50,963 bases of DNA. It comes from a virus. Positions 36,366-40,712 of this stretch are shown here, one piece after another. Each line of letters starts with the position of its first letter. Position 1 is the stretch's first letter. The notes under the pieces are model-generated. The model did no database searches. It saw only the letters and a list, made by a program, of their open reading frames with translations, and was not told the DNA's origin. The stretch is from positions 1 through 50,963 of the IMG/VR virus record IMGVR_UViG_3300025520_000101; one strand, 5' to 3'. The translations under genes were made by a program, and so were the position numbers.

Positions 36366-38006
36366 TTAATAATCATTCGATTCGTATTTACTCCACGAAC
36401 GACCAAATAATTCATTTCCGTCCGATAAGCGTAAGATTGCTGTCTCTTCTAAGATTTTATGAGCCTTTGTAGTTGTAGAGTCAGCTTTATCAAATGCAAT
36501 AAAAACCTGACGTCTACTGGTCTGATAACGTTCCAATATGCGTTCCAGATGAACATCCTCGATACGCTTTAAAATATTTGAATCATGGATAAGTGCAGGG
36601 ATTGGACGTAATTCAAGTATGCTTAAATCGTACACAACAAGGCTCTTGTATGCTGTTCCCTCACTTGTATTGCTAGGTGTTTCAAAGACGATCTCCTTTT
36701 GAGGAGTGATATACAAAAGAGGGGCAGTTTCCTGTTCCTCAGTTACTACACCGTTAATTTTATTCATGCGCAGATTTATGTCATCTTGTATTTCATCCAA
36801 TTTTTCAGTTTGTTGCTGCAACAGTTTTTCAAGTATTTGTTCTGCATCAGCTCGTGCATCCTGAAGCTCTTTTTGATGAATCAATTCCGCTGTTTCTTCC
36901 TCAAGCTTATCAATACTTTTAGACACATTAACACACTGAGATAGTACTCTCTCAGACATCTCTTTTGCAAGACCAGACTCTTCAATTTTTCGATTAAGTC
37001 GCATAATCTCTTGATCATACTGATTGATTAACGGTTGTAATCGTTCGATTTCCTGATTCATTTCTTCGCCAAGGATTTCCCTAATTTTCTTATGAAAATA
37101 TTCAATCTCTTCAAAAGCTTTTATATTAGTGTTTGGGAAAAAATGTACCAAGGAATCAAATTCACTTGCGGTGTCTACTTTGTTATCAGCAATATTGCTC
37201 TTTATAGCATTAAGTTGTGATTGGAGGCGATTACGCTTGCGAACAAAGCTATTTAATTCTTTTTGAATTGCTGTTATTCTCTCAAACGCCTGAGTGTCAA
37301 ATCCAAACAAGGCTAATTGAGCTTCTTCACTATTTTTCATTAGCTTTTGAAGTCTATTCCTCAACGACTCTATTGTTTTTTGGTTACTCTCAATTTTCTC
37401 TATGTCAACCTTTTGGCGCTGGCGAGATTTAAGTTGTGAAGACTTAATTCCGAGTTCTTCCTCCATACTTCTTATAGAAGCAAGAATTCTATAGTGCCCG
37501 AATAGCTTTAATAGAAAATCTACAGCCTTTTCATCCTGTTCACGAGGTTTTACAAGCAACGGATACTTTTCAAGTGTATTTTCACGGCCATAGATACGGA
37601 AAAAACGCTCGGTTATTTCTGAAAATGCAAGGGAAGGAATCCCAATTTTATATTCCTGAAACAGAAATTTCCGAAAATCTTCTAGCGATAATTTTGTAAT
37701 GAAATGGCCCTCTTCATCACTCCGATATACATTTTTAGGATCATCCGTACTTCTATAGAAATAGTATGGTTGTTCATCAAACTCGAAAGTGAAATAGATG
37801 ATATGCGAACCTATTTCCTTTTTTATATCATCAGTTAGGGAGTAGTAGCTTTCACCGCCGAATACATAATCTATAATCCATAGAAATGTTGATTTTCCGA
37901 TTGCATTACTACCACCTGCACTACCTAAAACTGTATTTAGACCAGAGTTAAACCGGATAACTCGATGATCCGGTGCAAATTTATCACACTGAATTTCCTT
38001 TAACAT
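36366..38006 (-). CDS. DUF2326-type SMC/ABC-like ATPase
   Basis: 546 residues from ATG 38006 with GGGAGGG upstream, inside the preceding gene. Walker A GGSNAIGKSTF (about residues 32-42), a long coiled coil (about 170-410), then KSLVVYDLSIL and RRQVFIAFDKAD near the C-terminus, as in DUF2326 ATPases of ABC-three-component (ABC-3C) systems. These are thought to sense nucleic acid and trigger an effector. The stop overlaps the next ribosome region. It likely works with the two upstream gene products and may gate the Type III-like pair. Confidence 0.8.
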   Translation of the reverse strand: MLKEIQCDKFAPDHRVIRFNSGLNTVLGSAGGSNAIGKSTFLWIIDYVFGGESYYSLTDDIKKEIGSHIIYFTFEFDEQPYYFYRSTDDPKNVYRSDEEGHFITKLSLEDFRKFLFQEYKIGIPSLAFSEITERFFRIYGRENTLEKYPLLVKPREQDEKAVDFLLKLFGHYRILASIRSMEEELGIKSSQLKSRQRQKVDIEKIESNQKTIESLRNRLQKLMKNSEEAQLALFGFDTQAFERITAIQKELNSFVRKRNRLQSQLNAIKSNIADNKVDTASEFDSLVHFFPNTNIKAFEEIEYFHKKIREILGEEMNQEIERLQPLINQYDQEIMRLNRKIEESGLAKEMSERVLSQCVNVSKSIDKLEEETAELIHQKELQDARADAEQILEKLLQQQTEKLDEIQDDINLRMNKINGVVTEEQETAPLLYITPQKEIVFETPSNTSEGTAYKSLVVYDLSILELRPIPALIHDSNILKRIEDVHLERILERYQTSRRQVFIAFDKADSTTTKAHKILEETAILRLSDGNELFGRSWSKYESNDY

Positions 38007-38223
38007 AGCGAAGCACCCTCCCTTCCTCAATTAATTCAATTTTACCTAATGCAAACAAACAGTTTAAAGCACTTAGAAAATCAGCTAAGTCCTTTTTACG
38101 AGAAGCTGTTATTTCAAACAACTCTTTAGGGGACATGTCCTGCTGCGTTAATGCCTCTAAGATATCCGGAAAAAGAGCAATAACGCTATTAGTATAGGGA
38201 ATTACTTTATTTGGTAACCTCAT
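37984..38223 (-). CDS. ABC-3C middle component-like small protein
   Basis: 79 residues from ATG 38223 (GAGGTG upstream), overlapping both neighbours. It looks like a small winged-helix adaptor (FPDILEALTQQDMSPKELFE ... LADFLSALNCLFALGKIELI ... RVLRYV). Size, fold and place between the CTD-like and DUF2326 genes fit an ABC-3C middle component; the subgroup is not assigned. Confidence 0.65.
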   Translation of the reverse strand: MRLPNKVIPYTNSVIALFPDILEALTQQDMSPKELFEITASRKKDLADFLSALNCLFALGKIELIEEGRVLRYVKGNSV

Positions 38224-39445
38224 CGAACACCTCACACCTTTGTACGAAGTAGGAGATTATAATCTCACACGCTCCTCTATATTTGCGGCCTGTCTTTTCA
38301 AACAATGTTTCAACAAGCAGATAGTAAATTTCGCTTTGTGATATATGTGATTCACTTGCATCTTCATACATCCGTCTAATGCTTTTAGCAAACCTATCAA
38401 CGTTTAATCTGTTTTCACCAGCTAGCCGATATAATGAATCGTTTACCCCCTCATATAACTGCCTGACATCAAACAGCACCCGATCCTTCAACCGCTTTTC
38501 GGTAATTTTATTCTCAACCTTAACAGGCTTGATTTTTAGCTGTGTATCATCGGTAACATCCATTAAATCTACTTCCCGAAGTACTTGTTCAATTTGTTTT
38601 TCTAGTGTATATCGCGAAGTAGCATCCCTTGCTATCATAAGATTTTCCAGGTCACGCTTGTCCGAAAGCAAAGCCAATTTCTCTTCTTCGGAGGCACTCT
38701 GGATTTCGCGTTCACACTCAACACACAGAAGCACTTCATCCGTTTCTGAAAGGCGAACGACTTTAGCGTAGTTAATGTCATTGCCTTCTTTTTTAATACC
38801 TAAAACTCTTCCGCACTTTTGGCATTTGCCCCCTGTTTCTGCAAGCAACACGAGAGAGTGGGCGTCAATCGCAATTTCGTAAGCAGTCTCTGGAATCAAA
38901 TTACTATATGCCGTAATGAAGCTTATGTCTAATTTTTTATCTTCAAAGGAATGTATGTACTCATCTGTTATCTCACTAACACTGCCTTCGCAATTTCGAT
39001 TTTCGACGTAAAGCACTGTATAAAGTAGGATTCCTGCAAGGAAGTCCTCCAATACAAAGGAATTACGCTTTATGATATCTTCCTTTGTCATGCGGTTTAC
39101 TATTTCAACAATTGTATCAGGCTCGATAGAGTTATCAGATGCAATAATGTCTTTTAGGGCTAAAACGATTAGGCTTCTCTTATTACTATTCAACATCTGG
39201 AGAATGTTTTGCTTAAAGTAATCTGAAATATCATGAGGATCTACATCAGGAGCTGTTTCAGTTACTATTGGGGATAAATTTTTTTTGCCTAGTATTAAAT
39301 CTGAAACGGTACCATCTTCACCACTAATATCATAAGTGGGCGCAATAGAAAGAAGCATGGTACCACACAATCGTTTTTGTGTAACTCTTTTAGCCATGCA
39401 TTTCTTTAAAATTGTTGCAAAAGTACCAAAGCATAACTTTTTCAT
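38207..39445 (-). CDS. ABC-3C C-terminal-domain-like protein with zinc ribbon
   Basis: 412 residues from ATG 39445 with AAGGGGG upstream. The middle has a CxxC ... CxxC pair (CQKCGRVLGIK ... CVECERE, about residues 230-275), and the end is helical (SQSEIYYLLVETLFEKTGRKY ...). In ABC-3C operons the third component carries such a C-terminal domain and selects the target or effector; the position before the middle component and the ATPase agrees. Also seen is SIAPTYDISGEDGTVSDLIL near the start. No enzyme motif is visible. Confidence 0.65.
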   Translation of the reverse strand: MKKLCFGTFATILKKCMAKRVTQKRLCGTMLLSIAPTYDISGEDGTVSDLILGKKNLSPIVTETAPDVDPHDISDYFKQNILQMLNSNKRSLIVLALKDIIASDNSIEPDTIVEIVNRMTKEDIIKRNSFVLEDFLAGILLYTVLYVENRNCEGSVSEITDEYIHSFEDKKLDISFITAYSNLIPETAYEIAIDAHSLVLLAETGGKCQKCGRVLGIKKEGNDINYAKVVRLSETDEVLLCVECEREIQSASEEEKLALLSDKRDLENLMIARDATSRYTLEKQIEQVLREVDLMDVTDDTQLKIKPVKVENKITEKRLKDRVLFDVRQLYEGVNDSLYRLAGENRLNVDRFAKSIRRMYEDASESHISQSEIYYLLVETLFEKTGRKYRGACEIIISYFVQRCEVFDEVTK

Positions 39446-39468
39446 ACATTGCGCCCCCTTCAATAATT

Positions 39469-39687
39469 TTATTTCTTCGGAGTATCATCATCGATGTAGT
39501 CAACGATATCGCCTATGTTAACTTCAAGAGCTTTACAGATTCTTCCTAACACATCCATGCTTACCGGTAAATCTTTACCCATTTTTGCTAACGTTGTTGA
39601 AGTTAAATTTGTTCTTTCCATTAAATCCTTTTTCAACATCTTTTTATCAATTAAAAGCTTCCATAGTTTATTATAACTAAATGCCAT
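39469..39687 (-). CDS. XRE-family small regulator
   Basis: 72 residues. A classic HTH_3/XRE fold: YNKLWKLLIDKKMLKKDLMERTNLTSTTLAKM then GRICKALEVNIGDIVDY. It resembles YozG-type regulators. First gene of the leftward defence operon, directly behind its promoter, so it may repress itself and the operon; it could also be the lysogenic regulator of the neighbouring prophage. The ATG has GGAGGG upstream. Confidence 0.8.
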   Translation of the reverse strand: MAFSYNKLWKLLIDKKMLKKDLMERTNLTSTTLAKMGKDLPVSMDVLGRICKALEVNIGDIVDYIDDDTPKK

Positions 39688-39740
39688 TTTTAACGCCCTC
39701 CAAGCACTATTGGATGGTTTTTATTGATGCGTATTTACTA

Positions 39741-39813
39741 ATTATAGCAATTTACTAAGCGAATTTCAATCAATAATCTAAAAATACTAAGTATTTCTTT
39801 ACAAATGCTTAGT
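39741..39813 (-). promoter_or_regulatory. Defence-operon promoter with CTTAGT half-sites
   Basis: Minus strand: -35 TTGAAA (39764-39769), 17-bp spacer, -10 TATAAT (39741-39746). The hexamer CTTAGT or its complement ACTAAG occurs in the spacer (39754-39760) and upstream (39786-39792, 39807-39813). These are candidate binding sites of the XRE protein. Confidence 0.75.
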
Positions 39814-39842
39814 TTTTTTGTCGTGATGTAAAAAAAGAATTT

Positions 39843-39882
39843 GCGGAGTATCAGCGGAGTGTCAGCAGAGTGCCAGCTGAGG
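39843..39882 (+). repeat. Tandem 11-bp degenerate repeat
   Basis: Four successive units, GCGGAGTATCA, GCGGAGTGTCA, GCAGAGTGCCA and GCTGAGG (truncated), lie in the spacer between the two divergent units. The same bases read in one frame as a peptide without a start, so a decayed coding tail is also possible. The rest of the gene-free stretch 39688-40178 holds the promoter above and the leader below. Confidence 0.5.
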
Positions 39883-40006
39883 ATTTAAGACGCCCAAATT
39901 ATTAGAATTTAAATAGATGGTAAGACAAGCTTACTTTAGCAAATAGAAAAACTTGACCGCTTACCAGCTACAAAAAAAATATATCAAATGCCTGATTTGC
40001 AATAAG

Positions 40007-40175
40007 GGCAAAGGATACATATTGCAACGTTTCAGTCCGTTTAGGATTGTTATGCGTTGCAATAGAAGTACCTTACCTTGTTGCGATCATTTTCAGGATA
40101 TAAGGGTCTGTGTACTTCTAGTACAGGCCTATTTTTGTATCCTTTGCCGCCAGTGCAATCCGGCGGAAAGGATGC
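40007..40175 (+). promoter_or_regulatory. Riboregulator-like leader of the sigma-like gene
   Basis: GGCAAAGGATACA (40007-40019) is an exact complement of TGTATCCTTTGCC (40136-40148). The latter can instead pair, as TATCCTTTGCCGCC (40138-40151, one bulge), with GGCGGAAAGGATG (40162-40174), burying the ribosome site AAAGGA and leaving 4 nt to the ATG at 40179. In between are TATTGCAACG/CGTTGCAATA (40020-40029/40055-40064) and a terminator-like hairpin with TATTTTT (40105-40136). Two mutually exclusive states can thus be drawn. Confidence 0.65.
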
Positions 40176-40178
40176 AAA

Positions 40179-40712
40179 ATGAAAATTAGAATTCTGTATG
40201 ACAACAAACCTACCTATCTGGAGGTGCCAGACGAGGACTGCACTGTAATGATTGATGCGGATTATGAAGACAGGCTATCTTCTGCTGAAGATAAAGAAAC
40301 TGTAACTCGACGATCTGTCCAAGAAATTATAGATGAGCGGTTCAATAAGCCGGAATATAACAACTGGCATAAATTTGATAGACACAGGGGCATGCCCAAG
40401 AAGCCATTTCGCAAGGATGACGAGGCTGAAGATGAAATCGATCATATGGACTATTTTCCTGATAACTCAGATGAAGAGGCTCGGGAGAAGCAGGCAGAGT
40501 ATGAATATATCTGTGAAATTATTCGCAAGAATCTCAAAGAAAAACAGGCAGAACTTCTCATAGCTATCGTCATGGATGGCATTTCTGTAACAGAATATGC
40601 AAGGCGTGAAGGGGTTACAGTAGGTGCCATTTCACATCGCATGGAAACTGCAATGAAAAATTTCAAAAAAGTTTTTCCTAAATCCTCAACTTTCCCCTCT
40701 TCTCAAGGCTAA
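40179..40712 (+). CDS. Sigma-70-like phage regulator
   Basis: 177 residues. The start KIRILYDNKPTYLEVPDEDC is typical of early regulators of Clostridia prophages. The C-terminus has a sigma region 4-like HTH (LKEKQAELLIAIVMDGISVT ... YARREGVTVGAISHRMETAM). It heads the prophage early operon, diverging from the defence operon. The ribosome site lies in a hairpin. Confidence 0.75.
   Translation: MKIRILYDNKPTYLEVPDEDCTVMIDADYEDRLSSAEDKETVTRRSVQEIIDERFNKPEYNNWHKFDRHRGMPKKPFRKDDEAEDEIDHMDYFPDNSDEEAREKQAEYEYICEIIRKNLKEKQAELLIAIVMDGISVTEYARREGVTVGAISHRMETAMKNFKKVFPKSSTFPSSQG

What the first reader, a model, noticed from the sequence alone, without database searches (positions are those of the whole stretch)
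40007..40181. Switch-like leader with two exclusive pairings and a buried ribosome site
A 13-base segment (40136-40148) can pair exactly with 40007-40019 or with the ribosome-site strand 40162-40174. A 10-bp stem and a T-tract hairpin lie between. This is the logic of a riboswitch or antisense-controlled leader, ahead of a phage early regulator. I do not recognise it as a named riboswitch class.
Basis: partly seen in the sequence, partly recalled or inferred. Interest (0 to 1): 0.72.

Follow-up and report, generated by a model that had tools for sequence, protein, structure and literature searches.

The report
Self-pairing RNA switch before phage genes
A 190-base RNA leader at the start of a phage's early gene block can fold in two exclusive ways that hide or expose the ribosome-binding site, and its relatives keep these pairings, plus a self-matching loop suggesting that two copies bind each other, while the sequence itself changes almost completely; it looks like an undescribed class of phage RNA switch.

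Summary
The leader (39986-40178) of the early operon folds far better than shuffles (z -8.1) and has no Rfam match. Pairing alpha (40007-40019 with 40136-40148) is an exact 13-bp helix. The competing ribosome-site hairpin is 12+5 bp with one bulge, not an exact 13-mer. Related leaders occur in many Bacillota phages and prophages, before the same sigma-like gene and before several other first genes. Over sequences that have diverged completely, alpha, the ribosome-site hairpin and a third pairing (beta, into the terminator hairpin) are kept by compensatory change (permutation z -6.6, -5.3 and -4.8; 0 of 20,000). The logic is strands 1:2 + 3:4 (OFF) against 2:3 (ON), with termination apparently coupled to translation. 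New here: the 5'-most hairpin loop always carries a 6-10 nt palindrome whose sequence differs between relatives (10 different cores). Close relatives switch palindromes by paired changes. This points to RNA homodimerisation through kissing loops, as in the HIV-1 leader. No ligand, antisense RNA or leader peptide was found. The switch is well supported; dimer sensing is inferred, and its direction (ON or OFF) is unknown.

The parts
39469..39687 (-). divergent Cro/CI-type repressor (HTH_26), the likely lysogeny repressor
   Evidence: Pfam PF13443, E 2.2e-18
39953..39980 (+). weak sigma-70-like promoter candidate (TTGACC-16-AAAAAT) for the leader
   Evidence: 9 of 12 consensus match, no more than chance; conserved A/T-rich block just upstream of H1 in relatives
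39989..40010 (+). H1: 5'-most hairpin, stem 39989-39993 with 40006-40010 (strands 1 and 2)
   Evidence: first helix formed in nascent-length folds; RNAalifold consensus helix, G-C 31/31, C-G 31/31, U-A 16/C-G 11/U-G 4; cognate test z -4.1
39997..40002 (+). palindrome TTGCAA in the H1 loop (putative kissing-loop self-complementary site)
   Evidence: a palindrome of at least 6 nt centred here in 16 of 16 representative leaders, next best column 5 of 16; different sequence in each type; compensated switches between close relatives
40007..40019 (+). strand 2 of alpha (pairs with 40136-40148), also 5' strand of P2 and 3' strand of H1
   Evidence: exact complement; alpha cognate test z -6.6, 0/20,000; 117 of 546 alpha pair cells changed on both sides
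40011..40074 (+). P2 (40011-40014 and 40016-40018 with 40068-40074) capped by P3 (40020-40030 with 40054-40064)
   Evidence: MFE; P2 z -3.9; P3 z -6.6
39997..40086 (+). P1 (39997-40007 with 40076-40086): monomer pairing that sequesters the palindrome in the finished fold
   Evidence: MFE and growing-chain folds; P1 z -3.0, P0+P1 z -4.5
40064..40119 (+). beta: 40064-40071 (AGAAGTAC) with 40112-40119 (GTACTTCT, 5' arm and loop of the terminator); candidate anti-terminator
   Evidence: z -4.8, 0/20,000; forms unasked when alpha is forced, and the reverse
40104..40136 (+). intrinsic-terminator-like hairpin and T tract
   Evidence: only terminator-like site found in 39680-40300
40136..40148 (+). 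strand 3: anti-ribosome-site segment, pairs with strand 2 (alpha) or strand 4
40134..40178 (+). ribosome-site hairpin (strands 3 and 4) burying SD 40167-40172
   Evidence: SD unpaired probability about 0.02 or less; covariation z -5.3
40179..40712 (+). controlled gene: 177-aa sigma-70 region-4-like early regulator, first gene of the early operon
   Evidence: phrog_11138 E 8e-40 and phrog_1740 sigma factor E 1e-7; C-terminal helices pLDDT about 88, best fold matches are sigma factors but none below E 0.001

Best explanation
This is a cis-acting RNA switch that gates the early operon of a large group of Bacillota phages. SHOWN by sequence and covariation: four strands pair as 1:2 (hairpin H1) plus 3:4 (ribosome-site hairpin), or as 2:3 (alpha). 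The P2 helix that holds strand 2 has a 3' strand that can instead pair into the terminator hairpin (beta). INFERRED from folding: when P1/P2, the terminator and 3:4 are formed, transcription ends early and any read-through message is not translated (OFF). When P2 opens, alpha frees the Shine-Dalgarno sequence and beta breaks the terminator (ON). INFERRED sensor: H1 is the first helix to form, and its loop always carries a palindrome kept self-complementary while its sequence changes. Two leader RNAs can therefore kiss through this loop, and later folding (P0/P1) hides the palindrome again. Dimerisation would bias the switch, so the leader reads how many like transcripts are present (promoter activity, phage copy number or number of co-infecting phages). 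Whether the dimer turns the operon on or off is not known.
For: Structure far beyond shuffles. Cognate against permuted pairing: alpha over 36 leaders under 90% identical, sum -1041.6 against -774.7, sd 27.6, 0/20,000; over 15 leaders under 75% identical, alpha z -6.6, ribosome-site hairpin z -5.3, beta z -4.8, while three of five controls are flat. 117 two-sided compensated alpha cells. Forcing alpha produces beta without constraint and the reverse; alpha costs about 10 kcal/mol in the window, under 4 in about ten of 38 relatives, and is already the MFE in three. Alpha is retained before unrelated first genes: several other sigma-like proteins and a Rha-type regulator. Palindrome in every leader with an intact 5' end, 10 hexamer cores, 16/16 at one column. 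Paired switches between close relatives: TAGCTA/TACGTA at 93% identity, ATGGCCAT/TAGCGCTA at 87%, ATGGCCAT/ATGCGCAT at 86%. Precedent: the HIV-1 leader hides a palindromic loop by an intramolecular pairing (PMC7357161).
Against: No RNA probing, expression or dimer data. Permutation tests do not fully remove relatedness, and two of the five control pairs were not flat (strand 2 x ribosome site z -2.8; strand 2 x terminator z -3.1). Types B and D have no separate terminator hairpin by inspection, so the termination branch is not universal. Some relatives do not form beta when alpha is forced. The palindrome could serve a dimeric protein. Co-resident prophages in one genome can share a palindrome, so it is not a strict compatibility key. 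In a few leaders (L180, L208) the ribosome-site hairpin overlaps alpha only partly.
Confidence: 0.66

Rival explanations
1. An orphan metabolite riboswitch: P0-P3 form an aptamer and a small molecule decides between P2 (OFF) and alpha/beta (ON). The palindrome has another or no role.
For: Aptamer-plus-expression-platform layout, the GGAU(A/G)C...G(U/C)ACC internal loop recurs across types A and C, and switch logic on terminator and ribosome site.
Against: No Rfam class even at relaxed threshold. Apart from short patches, most positions of P0-P3 covary and few unpaired bases are invariant across types, unusual for a ligand pocket. The most constrained feature is self-complementarity, not a fixed sequence. 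The genes behind it are phage regulators with no shared metabolic theme.
Confidence: 0.15
2. Control by a phage or host protein that binds the leader, for example autoregulation by the first gene's product or a dimeric protein that reads the palindromic loop.
For: Leader and regulator are adjacent; in L016 and L018 the leader type and the protein's N-terminal part follow the donor while the C-terminal part resembles the window's.
Against: The same leader precedes several unrelated first genes and a Rha-type gene, and L019 combines leader type B with a type-A-like N-terminus. One protein would not be expected to read ten different hexamers while requiring each to be palindromic.
Confidence: 0.12
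3. Trans-acting or antisense control: the prematurely terminated 5' leader (about 150 nt) acts as a small RNA on full-length messages, or an antisense RNA is made in the region.
For: The terminator would release an RNA carrying strand 2 and the palindrome, which could pair in trans with strand 3 of another message (inferred and the alpha pairing).
Against: No antisense promoter inside the leader was found by the scan (one search shows only the repressor's own promoter on the minus strand); every needed pairing is already available in cis. It overlaps the dimer model and is not excluded.
Confidence: 0.1
4. A DNA-level element: operator, replication origin or other protein site whose inverted repeats only look like RNA folding.
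For: Palindrome and dyads near a promoter in the repressor-early operon interval; imperfect direct repeats lie upstream.
Against: The compensated pairs join the Shine-Dalgarno strand to the leader; spacers around the palindrome are often unequal (3 against 2 nt), as in a hairpin loop rather than a DNA dyad; the upstream dyads that look like operators vary while the palindrome stays the same.
Confidence: 0.04
5. A ribosome-stalling attenuator of the ermC kind, with a leader peptide over strand 1.
For: The 1:2 + 3:4 against 2:3 geometry is that of ermC (own knowledge), and type A leaders contain ATGCCTGATTTGCAATAA.
Against: That ORF is absent in the other types and has no Shine-Dalgarno; no short ORF with an SD-like site is conserved across the eleven leaders examined.
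Confidence: 0.03

Closest known systems
HIV-1 5' leader monomer-dimer switch (DIS kissing loop; PMC7357161)
   Same: 6-nt palindrome in an apical loop flanked by purines; in the monomer the palindrome is sequestered intramolecularly; exposure is coupled to pairing of the start-codon region.
   Different: DNA phage of bacteria; output is translation and termination of an early operon, not genome packaging; the palindrome differs between close relatives; dimerisation not shown here.
ermC-type translational attenuator (from own knowledge)
   Same: Strands 1:2 and 3:4 exclude 2:3, and strand 4 carries the ribosome site.
   Different: No conserved leader peptide; a terminator and a palindromic loop are added.
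Riboswitches with terminator or SD-sequestering expression platforms (from own knowledge)
   Same: Alternative pairings decide termination and SD access.
   Different: No known aptamer (Rfam negative), no ligand evidence.
ColE1 and IncFII antisense copy control with kissing loops (from own knowledge)
   Same: Loop-loop recognition whose specificity can drift by paired changes and which reads copy number.
   Different: Here the partner would be a second copy of the same RNA, not a separate antisense RNA.
GOLLD and ROOL homo-oligomeric RNAs (PMC12286853)
   Same: Bacterial RNAs, GOLLD and ROOL often phage-associated, that assemble with themselves.
   Different: Those are large non-coding RNAs; this is a short mRNA leader with an expression platform.

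Membership tests
Any Rfam 15 family | covariance-model match at gathering score | tested here: not met
   none in the window or in 15 related loci; best relaxed hits far below cut-off
Metabolite riboswitch | conserved aptamer that binds a small molecule | not testable with these tools
   no known aptamer matched; binding cannot be assayed here
Metabolite riboswitch | expression platform with mutually exclusive pairings | tested here: met
   alpha against ribosome-site hairpin, beta against terminator
ermC-type attenuator | 1:2/3:4 against 2:3 geometry with SD in strand 4 | tested here: met
ermC-type attenuator | conserved translated leader peptide over strand 1 | tested here: not met
   no conserved short ORF with an SD-like site
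T-box | T-box anti-terminator sequence and specifier domain (Rfam T-box model) | tested here: not met
   no Rfam T-box match
Palindromic kissing-loop (DIS-like) RNA | palindrome of at least 6 nt in an apical loop, conserved as self-complementarity rather than sequence | tested here: met
Palindromic kissing-loop (DIS-like) RNA | stem under the loop that covaries | tested here: met
   (z -4.1)
Palindromic kissing-loop (DIS-like) RNA | dimer forms and palindrome mutations block it | not testable with these tools
   needs native gels
Intrinsic-termination attenuator | terminator hairpin plus T tract with an exclusive anti-terminator | tested here: inconclusive
   met in the window (beta z -4.8), but types B and D have no separate terminator hairpin by inspection; termination itself not assayed

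The most novel reading that the evidence does not exclude
A phage mRNA leader that counts its own kind: nascent leaders pair with one another through a palindromic kissing loop before the monomer fold hides it, and dimerisation sets termination and translation of the early operon. The phage would thus sense transcript number, copy number or multiplicity of infection by RNA homodimerisation alone, with a self-recognition code that diversifies between relatives.
Probability: 0.35. Interest if true: 0.93.

Novelty: new variant of a known kind. Interest (0 to 1): 0.78.

Why it matters
The lytic-lysogenic decision in most Bacillota prophages is known mainly at the level of repressors. A widespread RNA gate placed between the early promoter and the first early gene adds a control layer, and it occurs in gut, Streptococcus, Erysipelothrix, Clostridium and Bacillus-group phages. 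If the palindromic loop works as a dimer switch, it would be a bacterial cis-regulatory RNA controlled by its own concentration, and multiplicity sensing by RNA would become directly testable with a reporter and a set of palindrome swaps.

Tried and rejected
Rfam at gathering and relaxed thresholds, window and 15 relatives: nothing. Leader peptide: none conserved. RNAalifold on the mixed 5' domain alignment recovers only H1 because P3 is misaligned between types, so covariation was measured by cognate-versus-permuted duplex energies instead. Model R1 rests mainly on sequence (4 pairs); it finds types A, A' and C easily but types B and E weakly and type D not at all, so genome counts are lower bounds; hits near the threshold were judged chance. 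The palindrome as repressor operator was considered and rejected because upstream dyads vary at constant palindrome. Plasmids: no match for one type C leader. Relatives of the window's genome could not be drawn because it is a virus record. Literature searches found no description of this leader, but most subscription papers are not held and no supplementary tables of earlier motif screens could be read. The window phage's host and taxonomy were not established.

Full report
WHERE IT IS. The window is a virus record of 50,963 bases. The interval lies between a leftward Cro/CI-type repressor gene (39469-39687, HTH_26) and a rightward early operon. That operon begins with a 177-aa protein (40179-40712) and goes on with two small proteins, a DUF2800 exonuclease-like protein, an Enc34-type ssDNA-binding protein and a family A DNA polymerase. 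The 177-aa protein has no Pfam hit, but it matches phrog_11138 (E 8e-40) and a sigma-factor PHROG (E 1e-7). Its AlphaFold model has a confident C-terminal four-helix part (pLDDT about 88) whose best fold matches are sigma factors and their region 4, none below E 0.001.

CHECK OF THE OBSERVATION. 40136-40148 is the exact reverse complement of 40007-40019 and both 13-mers are unique in the window. The claimed second exact pairing with 40162-40174 is not exact. The actual hairpin is 40134-40145 with 40167-40178, G40146 bulged, and 40147-40151 with 40162-40166. It buries the Shine-Dalgarno sequence almost completely (unpaired probability about 0.02 or less). The two pairings cannot coexist. The region folds at z -8.1 against dinucleotide shuffles. 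One terminator-like hairpin with a T tract lies between. No Rfam family matches.

RELATIVES. Protein searches gave 29 viral loci, then 49 loci in bacterial genome contigs (Clostridium, Bacillus, Lysinibacillus, Lachnospiraceae, Erysipelotrichia, Megasphaera and others) and 69 viral loci (many overlap). Nearly all carry a leader of the same design immediately upstream, in at least six sequence types that I call A (window), A', B, C, D and E. One relative (L088) lacks it. A covariance model of the 5' domain (R1, mainly sequence) matches 27 of 391 sampled genomes of one class and 14 of 395 of another at E 0.01; about 17 and 6 of these are strong. Several strong hits are not in front of the same protein. 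They precede other sigma-like proteins (L162, L163, L169, L174, L175, L177, L178, L179, L181, L182) or a Rha-type regulator (L176). So the leader is a module of the early operon, not of one gene. Deposited phages that carry it include Streptococcus phages Javan630 and Javan422, Erysipelothrix phage phi1605 and several gut phages, some filed as Ca. Heliusvirales; none annotates it as an RNA.

COVARIATION. I compared each leader's own strand pair with pairs made from different leaders. Over 36 leaders under 90% identical, strand 2 x strand 3 sums to -1041.6 kcal/mol against -774.7 (sd 27.6) for permutations, none of 20,000 reaching it. Over 15 leaders under 75% identical: alpha z -6.6, ribosome-site hairpin z -5.3, beta z -4.8 (all 0/20,000), H1 z -4.1, P2 z -3.9. 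Controls: -0.8, +1.7, +0.8, and two less clean ones at -2.8 and -3.1. P3 z -6.6 and P0+P1 z -4.5. Counting alpha pairs directly, 117 of 546 pair cells differ on both sides from the commonest pair. Alpha persists in leaders before the other first genes, for example 14 bp in L181 with a wholly different sequence.

LOGIC. Strand 1 (H1 5' side), strand 2 (H1 3' side running into the P2 5' side), strand 3 (anti-ribosome-site) and strand 4 (ribosome site) pair as 1:2 + 3:4 or as 2:3. The 3' side of P2 (AGAAGTAC) is complementary to the 5' arm and loop of the terminator (GTACTTCT); in type C both change to GAAGATG and CATCTTC, in type E to GAGATA and TATCTC. Forcing alpha on the window RNA makes beta appear in the MFE without constraint, and forcing beta makes alpha appear; this ON fold is about 10 kcal/mol above the OFF fold. 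In relatives the difference runs from 0 to 19 kcal/mol, under 4 in about ten of 38, and three have alpha as their MFE. The coupling of termination and translation is an inference from these folds. By inspection types B and D have no separate terminator hairpin, so translation control through 3:4 against 2:3 is the common denominator.

THE PALINDROME. The loop of H1 carries TTGCAA in the window. Every leader with an intact 5' end carries a palindrome of 6 to 10 nt at this position, with ten different hexamer cores: TTGCAA, TAGCTA, TACGTA, TGGCCA, TGCGCA, AGCGCT, GGCGCC, GCGCGC, GACGTC, and in L210 AGGCCT. The GACGTC case (L073) is less clear as a loop. Across 16 representatives the position scores 16 of 16; the next best column scores 5. 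Close relatives differ by paired changes that restore symmetry: L059 TAGCTA and L117 TACGTA at 93% identity; L072 ATGGCCAT and L141 TAGCGCTA at 87%; L138 ATGGCCAT and L024 ATGCGCAT at 86%; L063 GGCGCC and L076 ATGGCCAT at 82%. A single-chain palindrome without a spacer cannot close on itself, so the constraint points to pairing between two molecules, or to a dimeric protein. Against a DNA operator: the upstream dyads that look like operators vary while the palindrome stays, and the spacers in the hairpin loop are often unequal. In growing-chain folds H1 is made first and persists until about 40080; P0/P1 then invades and buries the palindrome (40098). This gives a time window for meeting another transcript. 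The HIV-1 leader uses the same device (PMC7357161). The direction of the effect is not determined by any evidence here.

NOVELTY. In mechanism this is a new variant of known attenuator logic. As an RNA family it matches nothing in Rfam or in the papers I could search. If the dimer sensor is real, it would be a new principle for a bacterial leader.

LIMITS. Everything rests on sequence and folding computation. Permutation tests reduce but do not remove shared ancestry. Host and taxonomy of the window phage were not established. Some metagenome-bin labels (Mycobacteriales, Parabacteroides) are probably misbinned contigs.

Noticed in passing
window 36366-39463 (-): Three-gene ABC-three-component (ABC-3C) defence-like set (DUF2326/AAA, MC7, CTD11) next to the repressor.
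   Followed up: no
window 39843-39882: Three to four imperfect 11-bp direct repeats (GCGGAGTATCA GCGGAGTGTCA GCAGAGTGCCA GCTGAGG) between the repressor and the leader, iteron- or operator-like.
   Followed up: no
L016, L018 against window 40179-40712: Leader plus N-terminal part of the regulator come from another phage type while the C-terminal part resembles the window; the join is near the invariant YNNWHKFDRH motif, a likely recombination point.
   Followed up: partly
L059, L112, L117, L023, L100, L018 upstream of H1: Inverted repeats such as AGTGCCAGAGGCACT, GAGTGGCAGACACTC and TGTAAGGGACAAGTCTTACA just before the presumed -10 region, varying between relatives: likely repressor operators.
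   Followed up: partly
G004 (L157, L162, L164) and G002 (L153, L163): Single bacterial genomes carry two or three such leaders; some share a palindrome, others differ.
   Followed up: partly
L178, L179 after the leader: The next long ORF starts only about 350 nt after the leader start, unlike all other cases; something may lie between.
   Followed up: no
L044, L049: Leader and protein on contigs binned as Mycobacteriales and Parabacteroides, probably misbinned Bacillota prophage sequence.
   Followed up: no
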